Assembly: GCF_943181405.1 (NCBI RefSeq)
Contig: NZ_CALPBY010000004.1
Coordinates: forward strand, 372,001-436,000
Length of the DNA: 64,000 bases
Source of the DNA: Cellulosimicrobium sp. Marseille-Q4280
GTDB lineage: Bacteria > Actinomycetota > Actinomycetes > Actinomycetales > Cellulomonadaceae
Direction of reading: 5' to 3'
The notes below the pieces were generated by a model. That model worked only from the letters and a program-made list of their open reading frames with translations. It was not told the origin of the DNA and made no database searches. Positions 11,800 through 35,434 of the stretch are shown here, in pieces. A program made the translations under genes and the position numbers. Positions within the stretch are counted from its first letter, which is position 1; the number at the start of each line of letters is the position of its first letter.

Positions 11800-13875
11800 A
11801 TGGGCACGTCGTCACCAGCCCCCGGGCCGCGCACGGTCCGCAACGTCGCCCTCGTGGGGCACAGCGGCTCGGGCAAGACCACGCTCGCCGAGGCGTTCCT
11901 CCATCGGGCGGGCGCGATCCCGCGGCCCGGCTCGGTCACCGAGGGCACGACCGTGTGCGACCACGAGCCCGAGGAGATCGCGCGGGGCATCTCGGTCGGG
12001 CTCGGCGTCGCGCACCTCGACTGGACCGCGCCCGACGGCGAGTCCTACCGCGTCACGCTCCTCGACACCCCCGGCTCGCCGGACTTCCTCGGCGCGGTCG
12101 ACGCGGCGCTGGCCGTCGCGGACCTCGCGGTCGTGGTGGTGAGCGCCGTCGACGGGGTCCGCTCCGGGACCCAGGAGGTGTGGCGGCTGTGCGACGAGGC
12201 GGGGATCCCCCGCCTCGTCCTCGTCTCGCAGGAGGACCGCGCGCGCGCCGACTTCCGCGCCGTGCTCGACGACGTGCGGTCGACCTTCACCGCGTCGTTC
12301 GTCCCGCTCGAGCTCCCGCTGGGCGAGGAGCAGTCGCTGCACGGCGTGGCCGACGTCCTCGCCGAGCGCGCGCGGGAGTACGACGGCGACGGGAGGTCCC
12401 ACGACGAGGCAGTCCCGGACGACGTCCGCGCCGAGGAGCACGCGCTCCACGACCAGGTGGTCGAGGAGATCGTCACGCACGACGACGAGCAGCTCGAGGC
12501 GTACCTCGCCGGTGACGAGCCCGGCGTCGCGGACCTGGAGCGCACGCTCGCGCAGGAGGTCCGCGACGGCGAGGCCGTGCCCGTGCTCCTCGCCTCCGCG
12601 CTCACCGGCGTCGGGGTCGACCGCGCGCTCGACCTCGTGTGCGAGCTCGGCCCGTCGCCCGCCGACCGGCCGGCCGTCGTCCTCCTGCCCGACGCCGCGA
12701 CGTCGGAGGTGGTGGCGGCACCCGGAGGGGACCCGCTCGTCCAGGTGTTCCGGACGGTGGTGGACCCGTTCGTGGGGCAGGTGTCCGTGTTCAAGGTGCT
12801 CTCCGGCAGCGTGGCGAGCGGGGACCGCCTGGTCGACGTCGCGACGGGTGCCGAGGACCGCGTGCACGGGTTGTTCCGCCTGCGCGGGCGCGAGCACGTG
12901 GCGGTCGAGCGCGTCGGCGCGGGGGAGGTGGCCGCGGCGGCGAAGCTCGGGGCGGCGTCCACGGGCGGGCTCCTCGCGAGCCGCCGCTCGCCGGTGTCCG
13001 CGCGACCGCTGCCCGGCCGGCCGGCCGTCTACGCGCACGCGCTGCGGCCCGTCTCGCAGTCCGACGACGACAAGCTCTCCGCCGCGCTCGCACGCCTCGT
13101 CGCGGAGGACCCGACGCTGCACGTGGACCTCACCGGAACCCAGGCGGTGCTCGGCGGGCTCGGCGACACGCATCTCGCCGTCGCGCTCGAACGGCTCGGG
13201 CGCACGTTCGGCGTGCACGTGACGACCGAGCCCGTCCAGGTCGCGTACCGCGAGACGATCGCGCGGCCGGCCGAGGCCGAGGGGAGGCTCAAGAAGCAGT
13301 CGGGCGGGCACGGCCAGTTCGCCGTCGTGCAGCTGCGGGTGTCGCCCCTGCCTCGGGGATCGGGGTTCGAGTTCGCCAACGCGGTCGTCGGCGGGTCCGT
13401 GCCGCGGCAGTACCTCCCGGCGGTCGAGCGCGGCGTCGCCGAGGCGATGGCCGCGGGCGGTCCGCACGGCTACCCCGTCGTGGACGTGCGCGTCGAGGTG
13501 TACGACGGCAAGGCGCACTCCGTCGACTCGTCCGACATGGCGTTCCGCACCGCCGGCGCCGTGGGGCTGCGCGAGGCGCTCGCCGCGGCCGGGACCGTCG
13601 TGCTCGAACCGGTCTCGGCCGTGACCGTGACCGTCCCGCCCGACGCGCAGGGCGACGTCATGGGCGACCTGTCGGCCCGGCGCGGCCACATCACCGCCAC
13701 CGACTCGCTCGACGACGGACGTGTCGTCGTCGAGGCGCTCGTCCCCGAGGCCGAGCTCGTGCGCTACGTGCTCGACCTGCGGTCGCTCACGGGCGGCCGC
13801 GGGTCGTTCACGGCACGCCCCGACCGGTACGAGACCCTCCCGGGCGGCGTCCCCGCCCCGAGCCCCACGAGGTAG
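11800..13875 (+). CDS. fusA2: elongation factor G-like protein, EF-G2 type
   Basis: A 691-residue translational GTPase paralogue. Domain I starts with the P-loop GHSGSGKTT near residue 22 and the G3 motif DTPGSPDF in place of the usual DTPGHVDF. The G4 motif is VSQEDR where canonical EF-G has NKxD, so guanine recognition is altered. Domain II, III, IV (SGGHGQFAVVQLRV and later FRTAGAVGLREALAAAG) and V (GDVMGDLSARRGHI) follow in normal order. The ATG at 11800 has GGGAGG upstream; a promoter-like TAGCCT at 11731-11736 precedes it. The stop codon TAG lies inside a repeat of the CGAGGTAGTACC family. The function of the EF-G2 class is not settled. Confidence 0.88.
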   Translation: MGTSSPAPGPRTVRNVALVGHSGSGKTTLAEAFLHRAGAIPRPGSVTEGTTVCDHEPEEIARGISVGLGVAHLDWTAPDGESYRVTLLDTPGSPDFLGAVDAALAVADLAVVVVSAVDGVRSGTQEVWRLCDEAGIPRLVLVSQEDRARADFRAVLDDVRSTFTASFVPLELPLGEEQSLHGVADVLAERAREYDGDGRSHDEAVPDDVRAEEHALHDQVVEEIVTHDDEQLEAYLAGDEPGVADLERTLAQEVRDGEAVPVLLASALTGVGVDRALDLVCELGPSPADRPAVVLLPDAATSEVVAAPGGDPLVQVFRTVVDPFVGQVSVFKVLSGSVASGDRLVDVATGAEDRVHGLFRLRGREHVAVERVGAGEVAAAAKLGAASTGGLLASRRSPVSARPLPGRPAVYAHALRPVSQSDDDKLSAALARLVAEDPTLHVDLTGTQAVLGGLGDTHLAVALERLGRTFGVHVTTEPVQVAYRETIARPAEAEGRLKKQSGGHGQFAVVQLRVSPLPRGSGFEFANAVVGGSVPRQYLPAVERGVAEAMAAGGPHGYPVVDVRVEVYDGKAHSVDSSDMAFRTAGAVGLREALAAAGTVVLEPVSAVTVTVPPDAQGDVMGDLSARRGHITATDSLDDGRVVVEALVPEAELVRYVLDLRSLTGGRGSFTARPDRYETLPGGVPAPSPTR

Positions 13876-13930
13876 TACCGCAACCCGCCGAGGTAGTACC
13901 CCTGTCCGCCGAGGTAGTACCGCAGCCCGC
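13868..13930 (+). repeat. three tandem 21-bp CGAGGTAGTACC units at the 3' end of the EF-G2 gene
   Basis: Units begin at 13868, 13889 and 13910, each CGAGGTAGTACC followed by a nine-base GC-rich tail such as GCAACCCGC. The first unit supplies the TAG stop codon of the EF-G2 gene. No inverted partner arm lies directly downstream, unlike other copies of this family in the window. The remainder of the gap to 14022 shows nothing recognisable. Confidence 0.85.
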
Positions 13931-14021
13931 CGGTCTCGCCCGTCGTGTCGGTGCATACCTGAGGCTTGCCGCGCCGAGGCCCGCGACGACGGCGTCGGCC
14001 GTCGTCGCCCTGCGGCGGCGC

Positions 14022-14564
14022 CTATGACGTGACAGTGAGCTCGTCGCCCCGTCCGGAGATCTCGACGTGACGAGGTAGCGGACTCTTCGTGGTGACGAGC
14101 TCGCCGTCCGCGTCCTGAGCGCGCCACACCGCCTGGCCGCCGGCGACGACGTGCTGGCCGGTGTCTTCGTCGTCGAGCACTCTCCACGGGCGGAGATACA
14201 CCACGTAGCGCGTTCCTGGGCCGGGCTCGAGTGCCGGTGCGACGTTCACCCAGCGGTCGCCTTCCTGGCGGATCTCGACGACGTCGCCCGCGGAGAGCGG
14301 CCCGGCCCCCGACGCGACGACGTCGACCTGCGTCACCACGAACGAAGCACCGTGCATCTCCTCGGTGCGCTGCGCCCCCGTCGGCTCGACGAGCACGACG
14401 TCGCTCGCCACGTCCTCGAGCTGCCTGAGCGTGCTGTGCTCCGTCATGAGGTCCAGCTCAGGGGCGCTGGGCTGGACGGTCGTGGTCTCGACCACCACCA
14501 GGACCCCGAGAAGTCCGAGCCCACCCAGGAGCACGAGCGACTTCCATGCCCGCTGCTGCGTCAT
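14022..14564 (-). CDS. hypothetical membrane-anchored protein
   Basis: A 180-residue protein that I do not recognise. The ATG at 14562-14564 gives MTQQRAWKSL followed by the hydrophobic stretch VLLGGLGLLGVLVVV (residues 11-26), a single membrane anchor or uncleaved signal. The exported part (about residues 30-180) is soluble-looking and mostly beta, with ALEPGPGTRYVVYLRPW and acidic turns. The presence of GTRYVVYL is reminiscent of small export-domain proteins that bind nothing known. GGGGAG lies about ten bases upstream. It stands alone between the EF-G2 repeats and the heme uptake operon. Confidence 0.6.
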   Translation of the reverse strand: MTQQRAWKSLVLLGGLGLLGVLVVVETTTVQPSAPELDLMTEHSTLRQLEDVASDVVLVEPTGAQRTEEMHGASFVVTQVDVVASGAGPLSAGDVVEIRQEGDRWVNVAPALEPGPGTRYVVYLRPWRVLDDEDTGQHVVAGGQAVWRAQDADGELVTTKSPLPRHVEISGRGDELTVTS

Positions 14565-14629
14565 CGCGTACCAGCTCCCCACCGTCCGTCGCGCCGCACA
14601 GCCTAGGTGACTCGGGAGGTCTTTCGGCG

Positions 14630-14649
14630 GACCGCGGTACTCCCTCGGC
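14630..14649 (-). repeat. single CGAGGTAG-family arm after hmuV
   Basis: Reading with the heme operon, CCGAGGGAGTACCGCGGTCC occurs 5 nt after the hmuV stop. It is the variant of the repeat with GAGGGAG instead of GAGGTAG that serves as the pairing arm elsewhere. No clear partner is nearby, so it may act only as part of a weak terminator. Confidence 0.6.
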
Positions 14650-14654
14650 AGGGG

Positions 14655-15527
14655 TCAGCGGCGCGGCAGCACGATCGGCGCGCCGCCGCACGGGTGCTCG
14701 ACGATCTCGACCGGATAGTCGTAGACCTCGCTGAGCAGCGCCTCGGTGAGCACCTCGCGCGGTCCGCCGTCCGCCACCACACGACCGTGCGCGAGCAGCG
14801 TCACGCGGTCCGCGTATGCCGCGGCGAGCGACAGGTCGTGCACGACGACGACGACCGCACCGCCCGCGGCGGCGTGCGCCCGTGCGAGCCGGAGCACCAG
14901 CTCCTGGTGCTTGAGGTCGAGCGCGGCGGTGGGCTCGTCGAGCATGAGCAGCGTCGTGCGCTGGGCGAGCACGCGCGAGAGCGCGACGCGCGCCTTCTCG
15001 CCGCCGGACAGCGACGTGAAGTGCCGCTCGGCGAGGTGCTCGACGTCCGTCGCTCGGAGGGCCGTCGCCACAGCATCGTCATCGGCTTCCTCGAGCGGCG
15101 TGCCGCGCCAGGGCGAGCGACCCATGCGCACGACGTCGACGGCCGTGAACGGGAAGCTGAGCGACACCTGCTGGAGCAGCACCGCCCGGCGCATCGCCAG
15201 CTCGGTGGGCGACCAGTCGCCCAGCGCGCGTCCGTGCACGACGACGTCCCCCGCCTCCGGGGTCAGGTCGCCCGTCAGCACCCCGAGCAGCGAGGACTTG
15301 CCCGCGCCGTTGGGACCCAGCAGCGCCCGCACCTCGCCCGCGCGCACGTCCACGGACACGTCGCGCAGGATCGGCGCCCCGCCCAGCGTGAGCGACACCG
15401 CGTGCGCGGCAGTGACGACGTCGCCGGGCGAGACGGGCTCGGGCAGGCGGGACCGGCGTCGGGCACCGGTCACGGCGGTCCGCAGCGAGCCCAGGAACGA
15501 GGAGCCCTCGTGGCGCAGGTCGGTCAT
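14655..15527 (-). CDS. hmuV: heme ABC transporter ATP-binding protein
   Basis: The 290-residue ATPase of the heme importer. Walker A GPNGAGKSSL is near residue 73, the Q-loop VLLQQVSLSFPF near 120, signature LSGGEKARVALSR near 175 and Walker B LLMLDEPTAALDL near 195. The FecE/HmuV-type Q-loop and short C-terminus place it with iron-chelate/heme uptake ATPases. The ATG at 15525-15527 overlaps the stop of the permease gene, so hmuU and hmuV are coupled. It powers HmuU for heme import to the cytoplasm, where heme oxygenase at 18093-18761 could release the iron. Confidence 0.92.
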   Translation of the reverse strand: MTDLRHEGSSFLGSLRTAVTGARRRSRLPEPVSPGDVVTAAHAVSLTLGGAPILRDVSVDVRAGEVRALLGPNGAGKSSLLGVLTGDLTPEAGDVVVHGRALGDWSPTELAMRRAVLLQQVSLSFPFTAVDVVRMGRSPWRGTPLEEADDDAVATALRATDVEHLAERHFTSLSGGEKARVALSRVLAQRTTLLMLDEPTAALDLKHQELVLRLARAHAAAGGAVVVVVHDLSLAAAYADRVTLLAHGRVVADGGPREVLTEALLSEVYDYPVEIVEHPCGGAPIVLPRR

Positions 15528-16681
15528 GCCCAGCCTCCCTGGCGCGAGCGCGTGCGGCGCAGGAGGTAGAAGAAGAACGGCCCGCCGACGAGCGACGTGA
15601 TCATGCCGAGCGGCAGCTCGACGCTCGCGACGGCGCTGCGCGCGAGGAGGTCGGCGGCGAGCAGCACGACGGCGCCGCCCAGCACCGAGGCCGGGATGAG
15701 CGTGCGGTGGCTCGGCCCGCAGACCATGCGCACGAGGTGCGGCACGACGAGCCCGACGAACGCCACGATCCCCGTGAACGCCGTGCCCGCGGACACCAGC
15801 AGCGCGACGAGGACGATGACGACCTGACGCAGCCGCTCGACGTCGACCCCGAGGTGGTGCGCCGCCCGCTCGCCCAGGGCGAGCAGGTCCATCCTGCGCC
15901 GCACGAGCATCGCGCCGGTGACACCCACGACGGCGATGGGCAGCACGACGGCGACCGAGCTCCACGTCGCGCCGCCCAGCGAGCCGAGCTGCCAGAACAC
16001 GACCTGCTCGCGCGCGGCCGGGTCGGCGACGAACGTGAAGAACGCGAGCAGCCCGCCCGCGAACGCGTTCACCGCGATGCCCGTGAGGACGAGCGTGACG
16101 ACCTCGGTCCGCCCGCCGGCGCGCGCGAGCGCGTAGACGACGAACGTCGTGACGAGCCCGCCGACGAACGCCGCCCCGGCGACCCACGTCCCCGGCACGA
16201 GCGCCCCCGCCGTGACGATGACCGCGCACGCGCCGACGGCCGCTCCGGCCGACACCCCGATGACGCCCGGCTCGGCGAGCGGGTTCCCGAACACGCCCTG
16301 CATGAGCGCGCCCGAGCACGCGAGCGCGGCCCCCACGACGATCGCCATGACGACGCGCGGGAACCGCACGACCCACAGCGCGTTCTCCCCCTGCGGGTGC
16401 GACGGCATCGGTCCCCAGTCGAGCCCGACGTGGTGCGCGAGCGACCCGAGCACCTCCGCGGGCGAGACCGGCACCTGGCCCGTCATCCCCGACACGACGG
16501 TGAGCACGGCCAGCGCGGCACCGAGCCCGCCCATGAGCCAGCGTGCGGCGCGGCGCCGCTGCTGCCCGACGTCGGGGCCCACCCGGGTGGGCCCGCCTCC
16601 CGGGCGCGTGGCGGCGTCGGGCACGGTCGCGGTGACGCCGTCCTCCCGTGCGCCTGTCGGGCGCGTGACCGGCGCGCTCAC
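15524..16681 (-). CDS. hmuU: heme ABC transporter permease (FecCD/BtuC family)
   Basis: A 385-residue BtuC-type permease with about ten membrane segments. After a 50-residue cytoplasmic leader come family signatures VRFPRVVMAIVVGAALACSG and MQGVFGNPLAEPGVIGVSAG, and near the C-terminus GIVAFVGLVVPHLVRM, which forms the coupling helix to the ATPase. The GTG start at 16679-16681 overlaps the stop of hmuT (GTGA), a strong sign of co-translation. It transfers heme received from HmuT. Confidence 0.93.
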   Translation of the reverse strand: MSAPVTRPTGAREDGVTATVPDAATRPGGGPTRVGPDVGQQRRRAARWLMGGLGAALAVLTVVSGMTGQVPVSPAEVLGSLAHHVGLDWGPMPSHPQGENALWVVRFPRVVMAIVVGAALACSGALMQGVFGNPLAEPGVIGVSAGAAVGACAVIVTAGALVPGTWVAGAAFVGGLVTTFVVYALARAGGRTEVVTLVLTGIAVNAFAGGLLAFFTFVADPAAREQVVFWQLGSLGGATWSSVAVVLPIAVVGVTGAMLVRRRMDLLALGERAAHHLGVDVERLRQVVIVLVALLVSAGTAFTGIVAFVGLVVPHLVRMVCGPSHRTLIPASVLGGAVVLLAADLLARSAVASVELPLGMITSLVGGPFFFYLLRRTRSRQGGWA

Positions 16682-17856
16682 GAGGCCGGGAGCTCGGGCG
16701 CGGGCACGCCGTAGAACGCCTCGACGAGCGAGGCGATCGTCGCGCCGGTCCGGGGGCCGAACGTCAGCAGGCGCGAGCCGTCCATGTCGACGACCCGCTG
16801 CGACTCACCCGCGGGCGTCTGCGCGAGGCCCGGGATCGCCATCATCGCGTCCAGGCCACCCATCGACGCGAGACCGTCGGTCATGACGAGGTACGCGTCG
16901 GGCGCGGCGCTGATGATCGCCTCGCTCGTCACGGGCGCGTACTCCTGCGTGAGCCCGATCGCCGTGCCGGCGTCCTCGGCGCCGATCGCGCGGACGAGGT
17001 CGTCGGCGCCGGAGCCGGGCCCGAAGAGCATCTTGATGTTCGCGCCGCGCAGGTAGAGGAACGCGACGCGCGGCGTGCCGGTCTCCGTGGGGACGGCGTC
17101 GAGCGCGGCGCAGATCTGCCGGTCCGTGCGCTCCACGAGCGCCTCGCCCTCCGCAGGGACGCCGAGCGCCGTCGCGACCGCGCGGATGCGGTCGTCCACA
17201 CCGTCGAGCGTGCGGGACTCGTCGAGGTAGACGACGGGCACGCCCGACTGCTCGAGCTGCGAGCGGACGTCGTCCGTGAGGATCGTCGCGTCGGTGAGGA
17301 TGACGGACGGGTCCAGGCCGAGGATCGCCTCGACGTCGAGCGCGTGGCCCGCCCCCGTGACGACCGGGACGTCCGCGGCCTCCGGGAAGCCCGTCGGGAG
17401 GTCGCGGCCCACGACGTTGTCGCCGAGCCCGAGGCTGTAGACGATCTCGCCGAGCGTGCCGTAGAGGTCCACGGGGATGATGCGGCTGACGTCGGTGACC
17501 TCGACCTCGCGCCCGTCGACGGACTGCACCGTCACGGGGAGCTGCGGCGCGGGGGACTCGGCGATGGGGTGGATCGCGTCCCCGGAGAACGCCGCGGTCG
17601 TGGGGCCCGTCGGGAACGAGGCCGGGTCGACGTCGCTGCCACCACCCGCGGCGCGCGACTCCTCGAGCGTCGTGCAGAGCGGGGCCGTCGTCTCGGTGGG
17701 CTCCGCGGACGGAGCGGCCGCTGGTTCGACGTCCTCGGTGGCCGTGGCCTCCGGCGTCGCGGGCGGCTCGTACGGCAGCGGCGCGCACGCGGCGGCGAGC
17801 CCCAGCAGGACGACGGCGCTCAGGGCACGCAGCGTAGAGCGGGCGGGGTGACGCAT
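16678..17856 (-). CDS. hmuT: hemin-binding lipoprotein of ABC importer
   Basis: A 392-residue surface lipoprotein. The signal peptide LRALSAVVLLGLAAACAPL ends in a lipobox with Cys24. A linker rich in Ala/Pro/Glu/Thr (25-60) tethers the class III (TroA/FepB-like) binding protein. The bilobal domain begins near SRIIPVDLYGTLGEIVYSLG and continues through VVTGAGHALDVEAILGLDPS and DAYLVMTDGLASMGG; heme-ligand candidates are a His in GHALD and a Tyr in QEYAP. A ribosome site GGAG stands nine bases before the ATG. An iron box at 17923-17941 controls this first gene of the operon. Confidence 0.92.
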   Translation of the reverse strand: MRHPARSTLRALSAVVLLGLAAACAPLPYEPPATPEATATEDVEPAAAPSAEPTETTAPLCTTLEESRAAGGGSDVDPASFPTGPTTAAFSGDAIHPIAESPAPQLPVTVQSVDGREVEVTDVSRIIPVDLYGTLGEIVYSLGLGDNVVGRDLPTGFPEAADVPVVTGAGHALDVEAILGLDPSVILTDATILTDDVRSQLEQSGVPVVYLDESRTLDGVDDRIRAVATALGVPAEGEALVERTDRQICAALDAVPTETGTPRVAFLYLRGANIKMLFGPGSGADDLVRAIGAEDAGTAIGLTQEYAPVTSEAIISAAPDAYLVMTDGLASMGGLDAMMAIPGLAQTPAGESQRVVDMDGSRLLTFGPRTGATIASLVEAFYGVPAPELPAS

Positions 17857-17922
17857 GGGGAGTTCTCCAAGAGCGGGGCGCGGACCGGCGCGGCCGGTCC
17901 GGCCGCCGCCTCGTAGGCCAAG

Positions 17923-17941: not shown

Positions 17942-17980
17942 ATCGACGGTGCTCCGCGGCGACGGGGGGACCGCGGTCGC

Positions 17981-18094
17981 GCGAGGTAGCACTGCGGGCG
18001 CGTGAAGTAGTACCGGGGTAGCGCGAGGTGGTACCGAGTCCCCACTCCTGCCCGACGGGGGTACTCCTTCGGCGTACTGCGGTGCTCCCTCGTC
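17981..18094 (-). repeat. nested inverted CGAGGTAG-family repeats after the heme oxygenase gene
   Basis: On the + strand three arms (GCGAGGTAGCAC at 17981, GTGAAGTAGTACC at 18002, GCGAGGTGGTACC at 18022) face two inverted arms (GGTACTCCTTC about 18059-18070, and GCGGTGCTCCCTCG at 18079-18092). Arm 1 pairs with the last arm through GCAC/GTGC, and arm 2 pairs with the first through GTAC/GTAC plus GAAG/CTTC, giving nested stems that keep pairing by compensating changes. The heme oxygenase stop codon abuts the last arm. Likely a terminator for heme oxygenase. Confidence 0.8.
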
Positions 18095-20889: not shown

Positions 20890-20890
20890 G

Positions 20891-23307: not shown

Positions 23308-24459
23308 ATGAGCAACCTGGAGACCCGTCCGGAAGAGCGCGTGTGCACCGCGGGCGCGTCGCACGACCCGGACCGCGGCGCCGTCGAGATCCTGGAGCAC
23401 CGCGACGTCCCTCTCGGCGGGACGCGGGCGATGCAGGTGCGCCGGACGATCCCGCAGCGCGCGCGGTCGCTCGTCGGGGCGTGGTGCTTCCTCGACCACT
23501 ACGGGCCCGACCCGCTGCCCGCGATCGGTGACGGGACCGACGGCATGCAGGTCCCGCCGCACCCGCACACCGGCCTGCAGACCGTCTCGTGGCTGTTCGC
23601 GGGGGAGATCCTGCACCGCGACTCCGTCGGCTCCCTGCAGACCGTCCGTCCCGGCGAACTCAACCTCATGACCGCGGGCCGGGGGATCTCGCACTCCGAG
23701 GAGACGCCGCGCGGCGTCCGCCCGCCCGTGCTGCACGGCGTCCAGCTCTGGGTCGCTCTCCCCGGCGACCGCCTCGCCGACGCGCCCGCGTTCGAGCACC
23801 ACGCCGACCTCCCCGTCGCGACGGACGGCGGCGCGCGGGTCCAGGTTTTCCTCGGCGCGCTGACGGTGGCCGGCGCCGAGCTGCGATCTCCCGCGACGGC
23901 GTACACGCCTCTGGTGGGTGCCCAGCTCGACCTCGAGCCGGGCGCGCGCGTCGTGCTCGACGTCGACGCCGCGTTCGAGCACGGGCTCCTCGTGGACGAC
24001 GGCGCGGTGCGGCTCGAGCACGAGGCGATCCCGGTGGCGTCCCTCGGGTACGTGGCGCCCGGTCGCCGGACGCTGACCGTCGAGGCCGGCCCCGACGGCC
24101 CGGCGCGCGCGGTTCTCGTCGGCGGCGAGCCGTTCGGGGAGGACATCGTCATGTGGTGGAACTTCGTGGGCCGCTCGCACGACGACGTCGCCCGCGCCCG
24201 CGAGGAGTGGCAGACCCAGCTCGTGGTCGACGGCGAGGACGGATCGGACGGCTCACCGGAGAACGGCCCGAACCCGGACCGCGGACCGGGCCGGAGCCCG
24301 CGGCGCGGTGGGACGCGCTACGCCGAGGGCGCGGCGTCGGGCCGGTACGGGCAGGTCGTCGGGTACGACGGCGGCCCGCTGCCGGCCCCCGTGCTCCCCG
24401 ACGTCCGCCTCCGCCCGCGCACCCGTCCTGCGAGCACCGCGGGGCGCCCGCCGAGGTAG
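23308..24459 (+). CDS. pirin family protein with extended C-terminus
   Basis: A 383-residue bicupin of the pirin family. The iron-binding motif of the first cupin is present as PPHPHTGLQTVSW near residue 85 and continues in GISHSEETPRG, giving His-His-His-Glu ligands. The body ends near residue 295 (GGEPFGEDIVMWWNFVGRSH). Some bacterial pirins are quercetinases or metabolic regulators, and no substrate can be assigned. The last about 85 residues are a low-complexity Gly/Arg/Pro tail, and the stop TAG is in the first CGAGGTAG repeat. The start ATG follows TACGCT six bases upstream (leaderless). Confidence 0.85.
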   Translation: MSNLETRPEERVCTAGASHDPDRGAVEILEHRDVPLGGTRAMQVRRTIPQRARSLVGAWCFLDHYGPDPLPAIGDGTDGMQVPPHPHTGLQTVSWLFAGEILHRDSVGSLQTVRPGELNLMTAGRGISHSEETPRGVRPPVLHGVQLWVALPGDRLADAPAFEHHADLPVATDGGARVQVFLGALTVAGAELRSPATAYTPLVGAQLDLEPGARVVLDVDAAFEHGLLVDDGAVRLEHEAIPVASLGYVAPGRRTLTVEAGPDGPARAVLVGGEPFGEDIVMWWNFVGRSHDDVARAREEWQTQLVVDGEDGSDGSPENGPNPDRGPGRSPRRGGTRYAEGAASGRYGQVVGYDGGPLPAPVLPDVRLRPRTRPASTAGRPPR

Positions 24460-24523
24460 AACCGGAGGCCACGAGGTAGAGCTCCGTGGGCTCTCTCTCG
24501 CGACGCCGGGTTCTACCTCGCGG
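24451..24523 (+). repeat. nested double hairpin of CGAGGTAG-family arms after pirin
   Basis: Outer arms CCGAGGTAGAACCGG (24451-24465) and CCGGGTTCTACCTCGCGG (24506-24523) pair; inner arms CGAGGTAGAGCTCC (24472-24485) and GGGCTCTCTCTCG (24488-24500) pair. The variable bases changed together (GAAC with GTTC; GAGC with GCTC). The pirin stop codon is in the outer left arm. It should terminate pirin before the DUF5926 promoter. Confidence 0.85.
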
Positions 24524-25621: not shown

Positions 25622-26509
25622 GTGAACGCGGACCATCGGTCGACCGAGACGAGGAGCGAGCCTGGGCGCGGCGTGCCCGCGAAGGCAGCGTCTCCCCAGC
25701 CCCCGACCTACCTCTCGGCGTCCGGCACCCGGGCGAGGACCCCACGACCGACGCACGACGGTGCCCGCAGCGGCCGTGCCGTCCGCCAGCGCGTCGCGGT
25801 GATCATCCCGGCGAAGGACGAGTCCCGGCGCATCGCCGCGACGGTCCGCGCGGCCAAGGCGATCCCGCACGTCGACCTCGTGCTCGTCGTGGACGACGGG
25901 AGCGAGGACGACACCCAGCACGTCGCGCGCGAGGCGGGGGCCGTCGTCGTGCGCCACTCCCACAACCGCGGCAAGGCGGCGGCCATGGAGACCGGCGCCG
26001 CGGTCGTCGCGATGCGCGACGCCCCGGACCGCCCGCCACGCCTGCTGCTCTTCATCGACGGCGACCTCGGCGAGAGCGCCGTCAACACGGCGCCTCTCGT
26101 GCCGCCGGTCCTGGAGGGGCACTCCGACGTCGCGATCGCCCTCCTGCCGCCGCAGCCCGGCGCCGGCGGGCGCGGGATCGTCGTGGGCGCCGCACGCCGC
26201 GCGATCCAGTCGATGACCGGGTGGACGCCCACGCAGCCCCTCTCGGGCATGCGCTGCCTGACGCGTGAGGCCTTCGAGGCGGCCACGCCGCTGGCGCGCG
26301 GCTGGGGCGTGGAGACCGGCATGACCATCGACCTGCTCCGCCAGGGGTACGTGGCGGTCGAGGTGCCGTGCGACCTGCGGCACCGAGCGTCGACCAACGA
26401 CCTCAAGGGGCAGCTCCACCGGGCCGCCCAGTACCGCGACGTGCTCGTGGCCGTGAACGCGCGCAAGGTGCGCTACGCCGTCGACAAGGTGCGAACGGCC
26501 ACGAGGTAG
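25622..26509 (+). CDS. glycosyltransferase family 2 protein
   Basis: A 295-residue GT2 enzyme. Residues 1-55 are a basic, Ser/Thr-rich leader. The GT-A domain starts at VAVIIPAKDESRRIAATVRA near residue 60, has the UDP-binding VLVVDDGSEDDTQHVAREAG near 90 and the DxD-like FIDGDLGES near 145. It resembles polyisoprenyl-phosphate sugar transferases but lacks any membrane segment. The GTG is preceded by TAGGCT seven bases upstream (leaderless). The gene is followed convergently by the giant duplicated membrane protein, and its TAG stop is formed by the CGAGGTAG element. Together with the lipid kinase it suggests an envelope glycolipid function, by inference. Confidence 0.88.
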   Translation: MNADHRSTETRSEPGRGVPAKAASPQPPTYLSASGTRARTPRPTHDGARSGRAVRQRVAVIIPAKDESRRIAATVRAAKAIPHVDLVLVVDDGSEDDTQHVAREAGAVVVRHSHNRGKAAAMETGAAVVAMRDAPDRPPRLLLFIDGDLGESAVNTAPLVPPVLEGHSDVAIALLPPQPGAGGRGIVVGAARRAIQSMTGWTPTQPLSGMRCLTREAFEAATPLARGWGVETGMTIDLLRQGYVAVEVPCDLRHRASTNDLKGQLHRAAQYRDVLVAVNARKVRYAVDKVRTATR

Positions 26510-29500: not shown

Positions 29501-31145
29501 TGACGACCGTCACGAGGCCGACGGCGACGACGCACCACGCCGCGAGGCGTCGCCGGCCGCGGCCGATCGCCGCCGTCGCGAGACCGCCGGCGAGGACGAG
29601 GCCCGCGACGGCGTACACCGCGAACGTCACGTTGTTGAAGCCGTAGAACCGCGTGAAGCCGACGACGGCCGACGTCCCGAGGAGCGACGCCTGCTGGAGG
29701 GTCGTGCCGGTCGCGCCGTCCACGGTGAGGACGAGCCAGGTGACCCCGGCGAGCGCCGTCGGGAGCGCCCACGGCTCCCGGGGCAGGAGCCGCGACACCC
29801 CCCAGGCGGCGAGGGCCACGACGACGGCGCTCACCGCGAGCGCGAGCGTGAGGGCTGCGGCGGGCGAGCTCCAGACCCACCACCGGGACAGGCTCGCGAG
29901 CGACGCGGCGACCGGGGCCGAGGCCGCGATCATCAGCACGGCGGTGACGACGCGGCGCCCTGCCGGACCGGGACGCGCGGGCTCGCCGCGCCGGGCGGCG
30001 GAGCGTCTGACCCACAGCGCGCCGCCGAGAGTCGCGACGAGGGTCGCCACGAGCAGGCCGACGAGCACCGGGTAGTGCGTCGGGATGGTGCTCGTCAGGA
30101 CGTTGAGGTATTGGCGGTTCTCGACCGTGCGCGCCACGTCGAGGCGGCGGGTCTCGCCGAGCTCGAGCGGCGCGCCGACGAGACCCTCGGTGCTCCCGCC
30201 CGCCGCCTCGACGACCGTCGCGGTGAGGTCGACGAGCTGGACGATGCCGTCCTTCTGCGTGCTCGGCGAGTGCAGCCACTGCCCCGTCGCCTCGCCCTTG
30301 CGCCAGTCGACGACGACCTGGAGCCCCGGCTCGCCCACGGGGTCGGCCGAGATGCCCGCGACGAGGACGCGCGTTCCCCGCGCGACCTCGCCCATGACGC
30401 GGTCGAGCGTGTCGTCGAGCGCGTCGAGGCTCTCGCCACGACCCGCGGCGGTGTCGACGAGCTCGCCCTGGTCCACGACCGTGACGTCGCACGCCTCGAG
30501 CCCGCCCTCGGGCAGGGCGTCCAGCGTCGGCGCGTACCGGGCGACGTGGCCCGTGCCGTCGGCCAGCATGAGGGCCGCGCCCGGTCCGACGGCCGTCGTG
30601 CAGACCCCCGTGGGCGCGAGGCGCGCGGCGAGGGTCCCGGGCGCGTGCTGCGTCGCCGTCGGCGGGTCCGCCTCGGTGGCGGGCGTGACGAGCGTCGACC
30701 AGCCGGGGACGTCGACGGGGGCCGGTGTCGTGGCCCCGACCGGCGTGGGAATCGGCGGGCACCCGGTCGCCGCCGGGTCCTCGGCGGTCGTCGAGCCGGC
30801 GTCCGCGGTCCCGTCGGGGACGGGCTCCGCGACGTGCTCGGCGGTCGAGATCGTCTGCCCGGCGGAGAGCGTGAGCCAGGCGTCGGTGGGGCACGTGCGC
30901 CCGACGTTCATCGACGCCACCGACCCGGACCGGATCATCGTCCACAGCGACGGTGTCGCCGAGGGGGAGACGTCGCTCCAGTAGAGGCCGGCGACGGCGA
31001 CGAGGACCACCGGCTCGGGGTCGTGCGTCGGCACGGTCGTGGCGTCGTCCGTCTCGGCCCCCGCGGCCGTGAGCGCGGGGAGGCCGAGGAGCACCACGGC
31101 CAGCAGGGTGAGGACGGCACGAGCACCGCGGGCCGGGAAGGTCAC
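26565..31145 (-). CDS. giant tandem-duplicated ecto-domain/polytopic membrane protein, function unknown
   Basis: A 1526-residue protein. Two homologous halves (1-752 and 753-1526) each consist of a signal-anchor, an exported domain of about 320 residues, and about ten membrane helices. The ecto-domains share the patterns TLSAGQ/ALSAGQ, AVGPGAALMLADGTGHVARY/AVGPGAALALADADGDVARY and VTVVD near the end, with some likeness to alkaline-phosphatase-fold enzymes (VVLVAVAGLYWSD; VVVGTTGVTWED), although the metal Asp expected there is absent. The membrane parts share FYGFNNVTF/FYGFGNPTF, WPAFGADFGG/WPTLGADLGG and LNDSGVII/VNDFGVRI. The second half starts at Met753 with a hydrophobic run like a signal peptide, suggesting fusion of two genes. 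The GTG start follows TACGCT six bases upstream (leaderless). It is followed by a short linker to the DGK gene. Confidence 0.8.
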   Translation of the reverse strand: MTFPARGARAVLTLLAVVLLGLPALTAAGAETDDATTVPTHDPEPVVLVAVAGLYWSDVSPSATPSLWTMIRSGSVASMNVGRTCPTDAWLTLSAGQTISTAEHVAEPVPDGTADAGSTTAEDPAATGCPPIPTPVGATTPAPVDVPGWSTLVTPATEADPPTATQHAPGTLAARLAPTGVCTTAVGPGAALMLADGTGHVARYAPTLDALPEGGLEACDVTVVDQGELVDTAAGRGESLDALDDTLDRVMGEVARGTRVLVAGISADPVGEPGLQVVVDWRKGEATGQWLHSPSTQKDGIVQLVDLTATVVEAAGGSTEGLVGAPLELGETRRLDVARTVENRQYLNVLTSTIPTHYPVLVGLLVATLVATLGGALWVRRSAARRGEPARPGPAGRRVVTAVLMIAASAPVAASLASLSRWWVWSSPAAALTLALAVSAVVVALAAWGVSRLLPREPWALPTALAGVTWLVLTVDGATGTTLQQASLLGTSAVVGFTRFYGFNNVTFAVYAVAGLVLAGGLATAAIGRGRRRLAAWCVVAVGLVTVVIDGWPAFGADFGGILALVPAFAVLALLVAQVRITGARVLVVAAVTVLAVALVAVVDWLLPGGSSHLGGFVQTVVDGGALEVVWRKALGAWATVANPVGAVAAVLVVLVALAVLRPDRARLPEVARAYERWSLLRPVVVSLVVVAGVGSLLNDSGVIIGAMVLVVGAAMVVPGFTALPAAAPTAGRDRPDRALQGRALPEPGVRRMPSMLLAVGGGLLLVVLLASAVLGSSGLRPASAAARAGAEVSPTRADAVATDRPLVVVGTTGVTWEDVAELRTPTLNALLTDGAGAAGVAQPTGAASRCTAGGWLALSAGQLTEVASGRAADGTWECPTAQPVPAGDGARVDGWDDLVALQQGSGYQARLGVLGDTFARAGRAACATAVGPGAALALADADGDVARYRELADATTADGDAYDCPVTVVDAGDATAPPADPTLPPEERTAVRDALRAERLAAVDATVDAVLDRVPARTTVLVVDVTGTPGGRPVLGTALVRPSSDGPEQARYLTSAATRTDGVARVLDVPATILDAAALAPPVRVQDTPLAWGTPRPPDAATTADALADLTSRDHVRRAVYTYFVDVPFYAGLALAGLCLLLAPRARRATGDRARLRWARAARWARGAALVVAAVPAAAFVVSLTGWWRFGEQTVAMVVATVLSTAAVAGLGALAPRRPVWLGPGLVAGITFGVLTLDALVGTPLNRASPLGSAPTFGARFYGFGNPTFSVYAVAALVLAAALAQWLVRRERPRTAAAVVAGIGVVTMVVDVWPTLGADLGGGLVVVPAFAVLGLAASGARVTWRRFLVVAAAGVAAVAAVGVLDYLRPADQRSHLGRFVEQVVDGSAWETLLRKAGYALRSVLGGVPVWITILVLVAAALLLFAPRRFTPRWFARTEAAWPLLRPTVLALWIVCVAGSVVNDFGVRIALIALIPAVPLLTLAALHAAGDPAPDGPDGDVPDGAVVRRSTSAGQDAVTAGPGRTT

Positions 31146-31243
31146 CGGACCAGCGTACGGGGGCGGGTCCGTGCCGTCGGGGCGCCCGGGGGTCACGACG
31201 AGGGTCCGACCGGAACGCTCACGCCCCCTCCACGGGGTCCGGC

Positions 31244-32395
31244 TCAGGCGGTGCGCACCACGAGCGCCCCGGGGTCGACCCGGCACTCGAGCTCGACCGC
31301 CTGGCCGAGCACGTCGCCGTCGACCTGCGCCTGCTCGCCGCCCTCGACGCGGACGCGCACCCGGCGGGCCCGGGTGTGGTCGATCCGGCCGATCTTCGCG
31401 GGCAGCTCGTTGCGCACGCCGAAGCCCTGCATGACGACCTCGCCGAACAGCTGGGCCCACCCCACGATCCCGCCGCGCGTGTCGACCGCCGCGACGTCGA
31501 GCACGCCGTCGTCGATGACGGCGTCGGGCAGGAGCGTGATGCCTCCCGGCAGCCGCCCGCAGTTGCCGATCATGAGCGAGCGCAGGCGCGCGTCCACCGG
31601 CGGCCGGTCGTCGAGCTGGATGGTGGCACGCATGCGGCGACCGTGCAGGTGGCGGATCCCCGCGACGAAGTACGCCATCCAGCCGACCTTCGCCTTGAGG
31701 ACGTCGTCCGCGTCGGCGACCATCGCGGCGTCGAACCCGAGCCCGGCGATCACGAGGAAGATGTGCTCCTTGCCGCCCGGGCCGTCCGGGGGCGTGACCG
31801 GGGGGATGCGGTCCTCGTCGCCCGGGACCTCGCCGGGCTTCTCCGCCCAGCGCAGGACGCGGGCCCACCCGACGTCTACCGGGCGGTCGGCGCCGGCGAT
31901 GACGACCCGCAGCGCGGCACGCGCGTCGCCGACCGGGAGGTCGAGGTTGCGCGCGAGGAGGTTGCCCGTGCCGACGGGGACCAGGCCCATCGGGCGTCCG
32001 CTGCCGACCATCGCCTCGGCGACCGCACGCACCGTCCCGTCGCCGCCCACCGCGACGACGACGTCCGCGCCCCTGGCGAGCGCCGCGCGCGTCTGACCGA
32101 CGCCCGGGTCCTCGATCGTCGTCTCGAGCCAGAGCGGGGCGGGGAGCGCGGCCTCCGCGAAGGTGGCGCGCACCGTGGCCTCGAGGGCGGGGACGCCGGG
32201 CTTCGACGGGTTGGCGACGAACGCGACGAGCTCGCGCGGGTCGTCCTCCGGCCCCTCGGCGTCCGGCGCGCCGCCCGCCGCGCGCTCCACGGCGCGGCGC
32301 TGGCGCTCCTGCTGCGCACGCAGCGACAGCACGAGCACGAGCGCGACCAGCGCGACCGCGAGGGCGGCGAACGCCAGCCACAGCTCCCATCTCAT
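31244..32395 (-). CDS. membrane-anchored diacylglycerol kinase family protein
   Basis: A 383-residue lipid kinase of the DAGK_cat/YegS/LCB5 family. Residues 5-27 form one membrane helix (WLAFAALAVALVALVLVLSL), followed by a basic linker. The kinase domain begins near VAFVANPSKPG at residue 55, with the nucleotide-binding AVGGDGTVRAVAEA near 112 and GLVPVGTGNLLARNLDLP near 135. The C-terminal sandwich has VDVGWARVLRW and VIDDGVLDVAAVDT. It phosphorylates a diacylglycerol- or sphingoid-like lipid. ATG is preceded by TACGGT seven bases upstream (leaderless). It precedes the giant membrane protein by 98 bp on the same strand and is divergent from serS. Confidence 0.88.
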   Translation of the reverse strand: MRWELWLAFAALAVALVALVLVLSLRAQQERQRRAVERAAGGAPDAEGPEDDPRELVAFVANPSKPGVPALEATVRATFAEAALPAPLWLETTIEDPGVGQTRAALARGADVVVAVGGDGTVRAVAEAMVGSGRPMGLVPVGTGNLLARNLDLPVGDARAALRVVIAGADRPVDVGWARVLRWAEKPGEVPGDEDRIPPVTPPDGPGGKEHIFLVIAGLGFDAAMVADADDVLKAKVGWMAYFVAGIRHLHGRRMRATIQLDDRPPVDARLRSLMIGNCGRLPGGITLLPDAVIDDGVLDVAAVDTRGGIVGWAQLFGEVVMQGFGVRNELPAKIGRIDHTRARRVRVRVEGGEQAQVDGDVLGQAVELECRVDPGALVVRTA

Positions 32396-32493
32396 GGGCG
32401 CCACCGTAGTCCCCGGCCTCTCGACGCAGCCCCGGGCCGGTCCGGTCGGGGACCCTCCGGCCCGCAGGCCTCCGCGTTCGTTAGGCTGCACGG

Positions 32494-33774
32494 GTGATCG
32501 ACCTCCGCCTCCTGCGCGACAACCCCGACCTCGTCCGAGCCAGCCAGGTCGCCCGTGGTGACGACCCCGCGCTCGTCGACTCCGCCCTCGACGCCGACGC
32601 GCGCCACCGCGCGTCGCTCACCGAGTTCGAGCAGCTGCGTGCGGAGCAGAAGTCCCTCGGGAAGCAGGTCGCCCAGGCGCAGGGCGAGGAGAAGACGGCG
32701 CTGCTCACGCGCACCAAGCAGCTCGCGCAGGACGTCAAGGCCCGCCAGGCCGACGCCGACGCCGCGGCCGAGGAGCTCCGTGGCCTGCAGTACCGCATCT
32801 CGAACGTCATCGCGGGTGCCCCTCCCGGCGGCGAGGACGACTACGTCGTGCTGCGCGAGGAGGGCACGATCCGCGACTTCGCGGCGGAGGGCTTCACGCC
32901 GCGCGACCACCTCGACATCGGCGAGGGCCTGCGCGCGATCGACACCGAGCGCGGCGCCAAGGTGTCGGGCGCGCGGTTCTACTACCTCACCGGCGTCGGG
33001 GCGCGGCTCGAGCTCGCGCTGCTCAACGCGGCGATGGACCAGGCGATCGCGGCGGGGTTCACGCCCGTCATCACGCCGACCCTCGTGCGGCCCGAGGTCA
33101 TGCAGGGCACCGGGTTCCTCGGCGCGCACGCGGACGAGGTCTACCGGCTCGAGGCCGACGACCTCTACCTCGTCGGCACGAGCGAGGTCGCGCTCGCGGG
33201 CTACCACGCGAACGAGATCGTCGACCTGTCGGACGGGCCGCTGCGCTACGCCGGCTGGAGCGCGTGCTACCGCCGCGAGGCCGGCTCGTACGGCAAGGAC
33301 ACGCGCGGCATCATCCGCGTGCACCAGTTCCACAAGGTCGAGATGTTCTCGTGGTGCGACCCGGCCGACGCCGAGGCCGAGCACCAGCGCCTCCTCGGCT
33401 GGGAGGAGGAGATGCTGCGCAAGGCCGAGCTGCCCTACCGCGTCATCGACACCGCCGCCGGGGACCTCGGGTCGAGCGCCGCGCGGAAGTTCGACTGCGA
33501 GGCGTGGCTGCCCACGCAGAACCGCTATCTCGAGCTCACGTCGACGTCGAACTGCACCACGTTCCAGGCCCGCCGCCTCGGCGTGCGCGAGCGCGTCGAG
33601 GTCGACGGCCGGACGGAGACGCGGACCGTCGCGACGCTCAACGGCACGCTCGGCACGACGCGCTGGATCGTGGCGATCCTCGAGAACCACCAGCAGGCCG
33701 ACGGCTCGGTCCGCGTGCCCGAGGGGCTGCGGCCCTACCTCGGCGGCCTCGAGGTCCTCGAGCCGGTCCGCTGA
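32494..33774 (+). CDS. serS: serine--tRNA ligase
   Basis: The 426-residue class II synthetase charging tRNA-Ser (two tRNA-Ser genes are also in this window, at 49.9 and 52.2 kb). The N-terminal long coiled-coil tRNA-binding arm covers residues 25-110 ([20 protein letters not shown]). Motif 1 lies around [15 protein letters not shown], motif 2 is [20 protein letters not shown] near 260, and motif 3 is [16 protein letters not shown] near 385. The GTG start is preceded by TAGGCT six bases upstream (leaderless). It is followed by a HAD gene after two bases, so they likely form an operon. Confidence 0.97.
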
Positions 33775-33776
33775 GC

Positions 33777-34580
33777 ATGGCGGACGGGGACGCCCTGCTC
33801 GTCGCGCTCGACGTCGACGGCACGCTCATGTCGTACGACCAGGAGATGTCGGACGACGTGCGCGACGTCGTCGCGGACCTGCGCGCCGCGGGTCACCACG
33901 TGGTCCTCGCGTCGGGGCGGTCCCTCGTCGCCATGACGCCCGTCGCGGAGGTCCTCGGGATCGACAGCGGCTGGCTCGTCGCGTCGAACGGGTCGGTGAC
34001 GGCGCGGCTCGACCCCGAGCAGGCCGAGGGGTACGTCCTGCAGGACGTCGTGACGTTCGACCCCGGACCGGCGCTGCGTCTCCTGCGCGAGCACCTGCCG
34101 AACGCCCGGTACGCGGTCGAGGACATCGGTGTCGGGTTCCGCATGAACGAGCTCTTCCCCGACGGGGAGCTCGACGGGGTGCACCGCGTCGTCGACTTCG
34201 ACGAGCTGTGGTCGGGGGAGGTGACGCGCGTCGTCGTGCGCGCGCCGGAGTCCACGAGCGAGGACTTCCACGAGCTCGTCGAGCGGCTCGGCCTCGAGGA
34301 CGTCACCTACGCCGTCGGCTGGACCGCGTGGATGGACCTCGCCCCCCTCGGCGTCACGAAGGCGACCGCGCTGGAGCAGGTGCGGCGGGCGCTGCACGTC
34401 CAGCCGCACCGCACGGTCGCGATCGGTGACGGCCGCAACGACGTCGACATGCTGCGCTGGGCGGCGCGCGGCGTCGCCATGGGCCATGCGGACGACGTCG
34501 TGCAGGCGGCCGCCGACGAGGTGACCGGGTCGATCGCCGACGACGGCGCCGTCCAGCTCCTGCGCACCCTCCTGCCCTGA
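33777..34580 (+). CDS. Cof-type HAD family hydrolase
   Basis: A 267-residue HAD phosphatase of the Cof/IIB subclass. Motif I is VALDVDGTLMSYD near residue 10, motif II LASGRSLVAM near 45, the Lys of motif III is in GVTKATALEQV near 200, and motif IV is AIGDGRNDVDMLRWA near 220. The C2B cap lies between motifs II and III. It acts on a sugar phosphate, flavin or pyridoxal-type substrate; none is provable. The start is two bases after the serS stop, so it is probably translated from the same mRNA. It is followed by a five-unit terminator-like repeat array. Confidence 0.88.
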   Translation: MADGDALLVALDVDGTLMSYDQEMSDDVRDVVADLRAAGHHVVLASGRSLVAMTPVAEVLGIDSGWLVASNGSVTARLDPEQAEGYVLQDVVTFDPGPALRLLREHLPNARYAVEDIGVGFRMNELFPDGELDGVHRVVDFDELWSGEVTRVVVRAPESTSEDFHELVERLGLEDVTYAVGWTAWMDLAPLGVTKATALEQVRRALHVQPHRTVAIGDGRNDVDMLRWAARGVAMGHADDVVQAAADEVTGSIADDGAVQLLRTLLP

Positions 34581-34582
34581 CC

Positions 34583-34707
34583 GCGAGGTAGTACCCCGGT
34601 CGCGCGAGGTGGTACGCGGGTTGCGCGAGGTAGCACCCCGGTCGCGCGAGGTAGTACGCGGGTTGCGCGAGGTAGTACGCGGGTTGCGACAGCGGTACTC
34701 CCTCGGC
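34583..34707 (+). repeat. five tandem 21-bp GCGAGGTAGTAC units with one inverted arm
   Basis: Units start at 34583, 34604, 34625, 34646 and 34667, exactly 21 bp apart, each GCGAGGTAGTACC or GCGAGGTAGTACG with a tail alternating between CCGGTC and CGGGTT. Unit 2 has GTGGTAC and unit 3 GTAGCAC. One facing arm GCGGTACTCCCTCGGC lies at 34692-34707. Each unit could pair with that arm except at one constant mismatch (T of GGTAG against C). It follows the HAD stop by two bases and precedes the GNAT promoter. Probable terminator. Confidence 0.85.
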
Positions 34708-34724
34708 CGGTATCGTCGGCGCTC

Positions 34725-35204
34725 GTGGACGCCGCAGCCGACCCAGCCGCAGCCGAGCCGACGGGCGCCGACGCGACGGCCGTCCGGGTCCGAGGTGCCC
34801 GGCCCGACGACGCCGCGGCGGTCTGGCCGCTCGTCCAGGAGCTCGCGACGTCGTACGTCCCGGAGCGCGCAGCGTTCGACGCGTCGTTCCCCGCCCTGCT
34901 CGCCGCACCGGACGCGTTCGCCGTGGTGGCGGAGGCGGGCGACGCCCTCGTCGGCTACCTCGTGGCGCACCGCCACGGGACCCTCTACGCCAACGCCCCG
35001 GTGGTGTGGGTCGGGGAGGTCGTGGTCGACGCCGCAGCCCGACGCCGTGGGGTCGGCCGGCTCCTGCTCGGCGCGGCCGAGGAGTGGGCGTCCGGGTCCG
35101 GGGCCGCCTACGTGTCGCTCGCGACGCGCCGGGCCGCGGACTTCTACACCGCGCTCGGCTACGAGGCGTCCGCGACGTTCTTCCGCAAGCAGCTCGGAGC
35201 GTGA
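34725..35204 (+). CDS. GNAT family N-acetyltransferase
   Basis: A 159-residue acyl-CoA-dependent acetyltransferase. After a 22-residue Ala-rich leader, the GNAT fold begins VRVRGARPDDAAAVWPLVQE. The acetyl-CoA-binding motif A is VVVDAAARRRGVGRLLLGAA near 105, of the (R/Q)xxGx(G/A) type. Motif B is DFYTALGYEASATFF near 140. The acceptor is unknown. The GTG start has TATCGT eight bases upstream (leaderless) in the end of the preceding repeat array. Confidence 0.88.
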   Translation: MDAAADPAAAEPTGADATAVRVRGARPDDAAAVWPLVQELATSYVPERAAFDASFPALLAAPDAFAVVAEAGDALVGYLVAHRHGTLYANAPVVWVGEVVVDAAARRRGVGRLLLGAAEEWASGSGAAYVSLATRRAADFYTALGYEASATFFRKQLGA

Positions 35205-35248
35205 ACGACACAGGTCCCGACGGCCGACGGCCGACGGGCGCCCGGAGC

Positions 35249-35434
35249 GCGAAGTAGTACCGCTGTCCGCGAGGTAGTACCGCGGTCCTCCCCGGTACTT
35301 CCCCTCGGTAGACCGCGGTACTACTTCGGCCCACCCGGGTGCCACCTCGCGGACCGTTGTACTACTTCGCCGAACTGCGGTACTACTTCGCCGAGCTGCG
35401 GTACTGCTTCAGTCGCCTGCGGTACTGCTTCGCG
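35249..35434. repeat. facing arrays of CGAAGTAGTACC elements between the convergent GNAT and map genes
   Basis: Two forward arms (GCGAAGTAGTACCGC at 35249, GCGAGGTAGTACCGC at 35269) face about seven reverse arms, among them GCGGTACTACTTCGG (around 35315), GGGTGCCACCTCGCGG (35337), TACTACTTCGCCG (35359 and 35381) and GCGGTACTGCTTC (35398, 35419). Read from map the repeats are also CGAAGTAGTACCGC in sense orientation. It thus looks like a terminator array for both convergent genes. The map stop codon touches the last arm. Confidence 0.82.

What the first reader, a model, noticed from the sequence alone, without database searches (positions are those of the whole stretch)
13868..35434. A repeat family (CGAGGTAGTACC) confined to gene 3' ends, with covarying hairpin arms
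Seen: arrays at 13868, 14630, 17981, 24451, 34583 and 35249, plus a lone copy at 26502, of a roughly 21-bp unit with one to seven copies, immediately behind stop codons. Inverted arms pair with them; the changed bases compensate (GTAC/GTAC, GCAC/GTGC, GAAC/GTTC, GAGC/GCTC; GAGG/CCTC, GAAG/CTTC). Several arrays keep the same T-against-C mismatch (GAGGTAG against CTCCCTC). I know of no described element of this form. Inference: amplified transcription terminators or RNA 3'-end structures, perhaps processed or bound by a protein.
Basis: partly seen in the sequence, partly recalled or inferred. Interest (0 to 1): 0.8.

Follow-up and report, generated by a model that had tools for sequence, protein, structure and literature searches.

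The report
Spreading repeats behind bacterial genes
A bacterium related to Cellulosimicrobium carries more than a hundred copies of a short repeat just behind its genes, often supplying the gene's own stop signal, and related species carry a differently spelled version throughout, which makes it look like a REP-like spreading repeat that sometimes serves as an RNA hairpin rather than a plain terminator.

Summary
The arrays are real and far above chance: CGAGGTAGTACC occurs 100 times in this Cellulosimicrobium-like genome, its reversed control once. They sit at gene 3' ends: of 40 arrays, 17 lie between convergent and 19 between tandem genes, none between divergent ones (1 of 44 with looser limits). 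In 17 of 53 adjacent ends the unit's own TAG is the stop codon. Mixed arrays face inward in 22 of 26 cases. Innermost units co-vary at positions 8 and 16, so a hairpin role is plausible, but only 2 of 5 window stretches fold better than shuffles and there is no U-tract. Against plain terminators: many arrays have one orientation, and copies lie in frame inside a narG-like gene and three others. At the narG site 11 of 13 species carry units and 2 are empty; position 8 is T here, A in nine species of another clade. I read this as a REP-like interspersed repeat, homogenised at DNA level without the REP transposase, often co-opted as a 3'-end hairpin. A second, conserved-loop hairpin sits at the apex of some arrays and has no Rfam match.

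The parts
13868..13926 (+). array of three + units (13868, 13889, 13910); TAG of the first unit (13873-13875) is the stop codon of the EF-G-like gene 11800-13875
14631..14647 (-). single - unit (CGAGGGAGTACC form), 8 bp from the 3' end of the ABC-ATPase gene 14655-15527 (-)
17982..18092 (.). array +++-- (17982, 18003, 18024 +; 18055, 18076 -), directly behind the 3' end of the heme oxygenase gene 18093-18761 (-)
24452..24520 (.). + units 24452 and 24472 facing - unit 24504 (GAAC/GTTC and GAGC/GCTC types); TAG 24457-24459 is the stop codon of the pirin gene 23308-24459; folds with z -4.66
26502..26509 (+). 8-mer CGAGGTAG only; its TAG (26507-26509) ends the glycosyltransferase-2 gene 25799-26509; doubtful single unit
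34584..34705 (.). array +++++- (34584, 34605, 34626, 34647, 34668 +; 34689 -), 4 bp from the end of the HAD-hydrolase gene 33777-34580 and 20 bp before the GNAT gene
35250..35432 (.). array ++------ between the convergent GNAT (34725-35204 +) and M24 peptidase (35435-36226 -) genes; its first 146 bases fold with z -6.77

Best explanation
An interspersed, REP-like repeat family of high-GC actinobacteria. The unit (CGAGGTAGNNCC plus a variable tail, 20 or 21 bp) is expanded in tandem and, in about half of the arrays, laid out as inward-facing + and - arms behind genes. Shown: placement at 3' ends, use of the unit's TAG as the stop codon, inward arms, a clade-specific NN dinucleotide and period, shared array positions in two species, and filled and empty versions of one site inside a narG-like gene. 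Inferred: units spread and are homogenised by a DNA-level process (slippage, gene conversion or template switching, perhaps with an unknown enzyme). 3' ends are the favoured seat because an element that brings its own stop codon does little harm there. Where both arms are present the transcript can form a two-way hairpin that stands in for an ordinary 3'-end hairpin.
For: Own genome 100 exact CGAGGTAGTACC against 1 reversed. 21-bp tandem pattern with free NN in 15 of 17 genus genomes and 7 of the other 183 family genomes, reversed control in 1 of 200. 36 of 40 own arrays between convergent or tandem genes, 0 divergent, against 36 divergent among 166 gaps (p 5.7e-5). Unit TAG is the stop in 17 of 53, 12 of 38, 12 of 33 and 2 of 23 adjacent ends in own, G032, G152 and G098. 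Commonest NN: TA in own (132), G032 (62) and G152 (97), AG in G098 (72); period 20 in G152 (79 steps, 1 of 21), mostly 21 elsewhere. All 25 orthologous gene ends of own and G032 with an array call in either one show units in both, 12 of them only on inspection. narG-like site: units in 11 of 13 genomes, none in G134 and G138 nor in the 4 paralogues read; TA units in own, one CA unit in G078, units with A at position 8 in the other nine. In-frame copies lie outside the Pfam domains of a copper-ATPase-like, an SDR and a NuoE-like protein. Two-orientation arrays seldom have a separate perfect hairpin (6 of 45 against 36 of 121, p 0.043; 7 of 61 against 36 of 119, p 0.005, with looser limits).
Against: No mobilising enzyme was found (no Y1 transposase, no reverse transcriptase in this genome; other enzymes were not searched). 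Positions are so stable between own and G032 that movement must be slow or old. The stretches compared were fetched because they hold units, so absence is under-sampled. A DNA-binding protein whose specificity drifted would also change units together. Position-8 co-variation between arms, stronger than between same-arm neighbours, points to selection on pairing of the innermost units. In the AG clade some narG copies are degenerate (G106, G118) or single (G088).
Confidence: 0.6

Rival explanations
1. Amplified bidirectional transcription terminators or mRNA 3'-end hairpins under selection for that role.
For: Inward arms in 22 of 26 own mixed arrays (24 of 31 with looser limits); best 56-nt hairpin of two-orientation arrays -36.8 kcal/mol convergent and -37.0 tandem, against -36.3 and -31.1 at 3' ends without arrays; position 8 co-varies across arms, 0.87 against 0.62 expected; fewer separate hairpins beside them.
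Against: No U-tract; unequal arms; one-orientation arrays without a hairpin better than shuffled sequence (L102, L110); three of five window stretches fold no better than shuffles; in-frame coding copies that follow the clade's unit type.
Confidence: 0.22
2. Phased binding sites of a DNA-binding protein (chromosome organisation or 3'-end insulation); GGTAGTACC is an odd palindrome and 20-21 bp is two helical turns.
For: Same-strand spacing is nearly always 20 or 21 bp; units change together across genomes; no exact CGAGGTAGTACC in contig C2 (734,919 bases) against 34 in C1, so the distribution along the genome is uneven.
Against: The position-8 variants A, C and G break the palindrome; inward arms are not needed for binding; copies lie inside coding linkers. 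No candidate protein was tested.
Confidence: 0.13
3. True GTAG-REPs moved by a REP-associated tyrosine transposase (RAYT).
For: GTAG in the unit, TAG as stop codon, 3'-end seat and in-frame copies all match the REPs of PMC3733652.
Against: Y1_Tnp in 2 of 200 family genomes, neither rich in units; a single unit has no stem-loop better than shuffles (z +0.66); some species have units without GTAG (CGAGAGAGAACC).
Confidence: 0.04

Closest known systems
GTAG-tagged REP elements (PMC3733652: abstract, passages, sections 5, 6 and 15 read)
   Same: short GTAG-bearing unit, seat close behind 3' ends of convergent and unidirectional genes, TAG used as stop codon, inverted and tandem groups, some copies in frame inside genes
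   Different: no stem-loop within the unit, no RAYT in the genome, 20-21 bp tandem arms with a different NN per clade, actinobacterial host (the word Actinobacteria does not occur in that paper's main text)
Rickettsia palindromic elements (named in PMC3733652 section 15; otherwise recalled)
   Same: palindromic repeats that insert in frame in proteins
   Different: other phylum; here most copies are 3' of genes and form tandem arms; sequences were not compared
Neisseria and Haemophilus uptake sequences that double as terminators (recalled, not tested)
   Same: short motif in inverted pairs behind genes
   Different: as recalled: no tandem arrays, far more copies, and an uptake role
Mycobacterial MIRU elements (recalled; one search found no paper for my terms)
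   Same: as recalled: actinobacterial repeats at gene ends that overlap stop codons
   Different: as recalled: longer unit and no inward arms

Membership tests
GTAG REP / RAYT system | conserved GTAG tag | tested here: inconclusive
   present in most units listed for this genome; absent from the CGAGAGAGAACC units of G088 (16), G129 (15), G118 (9) and others
GTAG REP / RAYT system | stem-loop next to the tag (stems mostly 6-9 bp in the paper) | tested here: not met
   a single consensus unit folds no better than shuffles, z +0.66; a hairpin needs two opposed units
GTAG REP / RAYT system | cognate Y1 tyrosine transposase in the genome | tested here: not met
   PF01797 in 2 of 200 family genomes (G075, G194), not in this one nor in any unit-rich one
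GTAG REP / RAYT system | seat behind 3' ends, TAG as stop, some copies in frame in ORFs | tested here: met
Intrinsic (Rho-independent) terminator | stable stem followed by a T-run | tested here: not met
   three terminator-like sites in 13800-33700 (1.8 expected), none at an array; none in 33700-36500
Intrinsic (Rho-independent) terminator | transcripts end there | not testable with these tools
   needs 3'-end mapping
Known Rfam RNA family | match at the gathering score | tested here: not met
   window: 3 tRNAs only; ten array loci: three microRNA-model matches, all below gathering; a stretch with two cores: nothing near gathering
Rickettsia palindromic elements | homologous sequence | not tested
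   no RPE sequence was compared

The most novel reading that the evidence does not exclude
Arrays and core hairpin are two modules of one unrecognised actinobacterial DNA element, moved and homogenised by an enzyme that is neither a RAYT nor a reverse transcriptase. It recognises the folded core (conserved loops, stems that co-vary with 54 two-sided changes and a single one-sided one) and rewrites the unit type of a whole genome in concert, inside coding genes too.
Probability: 0.25. Interest if true: 0.78.

Novelty: new variant of a known kind. Interest (0 to 1): 0.55.

Why it matters
In the survey I read (PMC3733652) REP-like repeats reside predominantly in Proteobacteria and the GTAG kind is tied to RAYT transposases. 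Here is an actinobacterial family with the same habits, without that enzyme, and with a readable record of genome-wide change: the same narG-like site is empty, TA-type or A-type in different species. That makes the old question of how dispersed bacterial repeats stay alike testable by comparing strains. It also warns against reading 3'-end repeats with paired arms as terminators from sequence alone.

Tried and rejected
RAYT mobilisation: rejected on PF01797 absence. Reverse transcriptase: PF00078 in 15 of 200 family genomes, 2 of 17 in the genus (G032, G065), not in this genome. Other mobilising enzymes were not searched. Carriage of the core by phages or plasmids: no blastn match of a 191-base core stretch in either collection, and no 21-bp-spaced unit pair in viral contigs. 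Rfam: three searches, nothing above gathering but tRNAs. Literature: eight searches, open-access papers only, gave no description of this repeat in their listings; one search listed nine papers that hold one of the letter strings, on unrelated subjects by their titles, not opened. PMC8266576: abstract and outline only. First impression 'array in one species only' among own/G032 orthologues: rejected, all 12 such calls were threshold artefacts. My unit threshold missed units with G for T (such as 34689), so it overcounts one-orientation arrays; one search recounts with looser limits: 73 mixed arrays (57 inward, 5 outward) and 62 one-orientation of 135, of which 31 of 44 near a 3' end point the gene's way; looser limits also admit chance hits (CGAGGTCGAACC in the narG coding sequence). 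Co-variation of arms as proof of RNA function: not accepted alone, since same-arm neighbours are nearly as alike overall (0.856 against 0.865) and template switching also perfects palindromes (general knowledge); position 8 stands out.
Full report
What is there. The window lies in a 4.86-Mb, 12-contig genome with 74% G+C in the window; the two named genomes nearest by one protein are Cellulosimicrobium marinum and C. terreum. The unit is CGAGGTAGTACC plus a looser tail (consensus SCGGTCSSS, seeds chosen by the core motif). Exact CGAGGTAGTACC: 48 + 52 in the genome, reversed control 0 + 1; CGARGTAGNNCC: 212 against 40. Same-strand spacing in arrays is 21 (60 cases) or 20 (26) in this genome.

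Where it sits. I called genes with a codon-usage script of my own, so single boundaries may err. Of 40 arrays with two or more units, 17 lie between convergent genes, 19 between tandem genes, 3 inside called genes, 1 undetermined, none between divergent genes; 36 of 166 gaps over 20 bp in the same stretches are divergent. With looser unit limits it is 19, 20, 3, 1 and 1 of 44 (the divergent one is probably the L012 array listed as divergent). The nearest 3' end lies within 12 bp in 24 of 36 cases; in 13 of 36 the array starts 7 bp before the gene ends, because the TAG in the unit is the stop codon. Three distances over 1 kb probably come from missed genes. The pattern repeats in G032 and in G152, which belongs to another genus of the family; G098 is looser (median distance 27 bp, 3 of 23 divergent), and 3 of 24 arrays in G152 are divergent.

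Orientation and pairing. Mixed arrays are + then -: own 22 of 26, G032 7 of 11, G098 4 of 5, G152 11 of 12; shuffled means 4.4, 3.4, 1.2, 1.1 (G032 and G098 alone are not beyond every shuffle). With looser limits 24 of 31, 14 of 20, 6 of 8 and 13 of 14. Of one-orientation arrays within 160 bp of a 3' end, 36 of 46 point the way of that gene, 31 of 44 with looser limits; in this genome alone there is no bias (6 to 4, and 4 to 4). Innermost + and - units match at position 8 in 0.87 of 31 pairs against 0.62 expected, same-arm neighbours 0.80 against 0.77; at position 3 the reverse holds (arms 0.71 against 0.64, neighbours 0.78 against 0.61). So there is a pairing signal, on top of local homogenisation. 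Two-orientation arrays fold as well as ordinary convergent 3' ends, and have a separate perfect hairpin less often (6 of 45 against 36 of 121, p 0.043; one-orientation arrays 11 of 34; looser limits 7 of 61 against 36 of 119, p 0.005, one-orientation 9 of 32). In the window only two of the five stretches folded beat shuffles.

Species comparison. A 21-bp tandem pattern with the dinucleotide left free occurs in 15 of 17 genus genomes and, with 1 or 2 hits each, in 7 of 183 others (G152 is nearly missed because its period is 20). The dinucleotide is mostly TA in own, G032 and G152 and mostly AG in G098; the places printed for G049, G065, G098, G106, G112, G118 and G129 are mostly AG, AA or AC. 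Own and G032: 68 orthologous gene pairs in the fetched stretches, 13 with array calls at both 3' ends, 12 at one only; reading these 12 side by side shows units in both species every time (some are the two sides of one gap). Fifteen of 29 G032 genes with an array call at the 3' end have their orthologue inside the own stretches, which cover about 6% of the genome. Unit number and the presence of the core differ freely. In L021 against its orthologue in L133 the stop codon is the unit's TAG in one species and TGA in the other. With G098 only 2 of 22 orthologous pairs had array calls in both (3 only in G098, 1 only in own), and with G152 none of 12, so sharing of positions is shown for near relatives only.

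Copies inside genes. In L029 the array and a core-like stretch are read in frame as DRGTTSA x3 plus a core peptide between the HMA and ATPase domains of a copper-ATPase-like protein. A related insert lies in a molybdopterin oxidoreductase (PF00384; 'NarG-like' is my naming). Thirteen genus genomes gave that gene. Eleven have at least one unit at one loop: three TA-type in own; one CA unit beside a core in G078; in the other nine, units with A at position 8, exact CGAGGTAGAGCC in five (G049, G065, G098, G112, G129) and variants in four (G088, G106, G118, G124). G134 and G138 have a short loop with neither core nor unit; so have the four paralogues read. A weaker CGAGGTCGAACC hit downstream, found in G134 and G138 too, is coding sequence of the gene itself. 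The tree of the flanking protein groups G000, G078 and G134 (100/100), apart from the A-type species (G138 is partial, many other branches are weak). Single units lie in frame in an SDR gene (L035) and in the tail of a NuoE-like protein (L041). A terminator cannot be what is kept there, yet the unit type follows the clade.

The core. At least four own arrays (L010, L014, L019, L037), and a number in relatives, carry at the apex a hairpin with two conserved loops; a 186-base query holding it matches 17 of 17 genus genomes. On 22 distinct sequences 95.9% of cells pair, with 54 two-sided changes and 1 one-sided change (sequences chosen by similarity). Such strict Watson-Crick change fits a folded DNA strand or palindrome-perfecting mutation at least as well as RNA (inference). 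A covariance model finds it in 53 of 200 family genomes, 11 of 25 genera (at most 23 candidates scored per genome) and 10 of 394 class genomes, own included, weak hits among them (sequences read). It is not in the window.

Verdict. Works like: a REP/RPE-type interspersed repeat, often co-opted as a two-way 3'-end hairpin. Is a member of: not the GTAG-REP/RAYT family, since stem and transposase tests fail. How units spread is not shown.

Noticed in passing
L019:2645-2721, L014:2650-2726, L010:1222-1302 and relatives: A 77-nt hairpin with conserved loops (CTACCATCCGC, TCGTYCCTC, CTCCCGCCAGRCCCRCCACG) on freely co-varying stems; in all 17 genus genomes, scattered further through Actinomycetia, without Rfam match.
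   Followed up: partly
G000 contig C2 (734,919 bases): No exact CGAGGTAGTACC in this contig against 34 in C1 (1,077,648 bases): arrays seem to avoid a large part of the chromosome.
   Followed up: no
L061, L070, L020, L090, L128 and others: Another dispersed stretch (CCCTTCGCATCCGAGCCC, up to 3 mismatches: 24 hits, a few of them the same place in overlapping loci, against 2 in reversed sequence), partly overlapping the 3' side of a core subtype.
   Followed up: partly
G000:C5:25-192, G000:C8:11-178, G118:C26, G118:C34, G129:C5: Contigs end in the core, and G032:C2 and C12 end within about 200 bp of arrays, so these repeats seem to break assemblies; L001 and L063 show poly-G/poly-C runs (L001 with N) at core places.
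   Followed up: no
L172 / L008:2186-2525: The narG-like gene of this genome continues in another frame after the insert, while the twelve other species read one open frame there.
   Followed up: no
L119:2281-2415: A core match stretched to 135 nt, that is with an insertion of about 60 nt.
   Followed up: no
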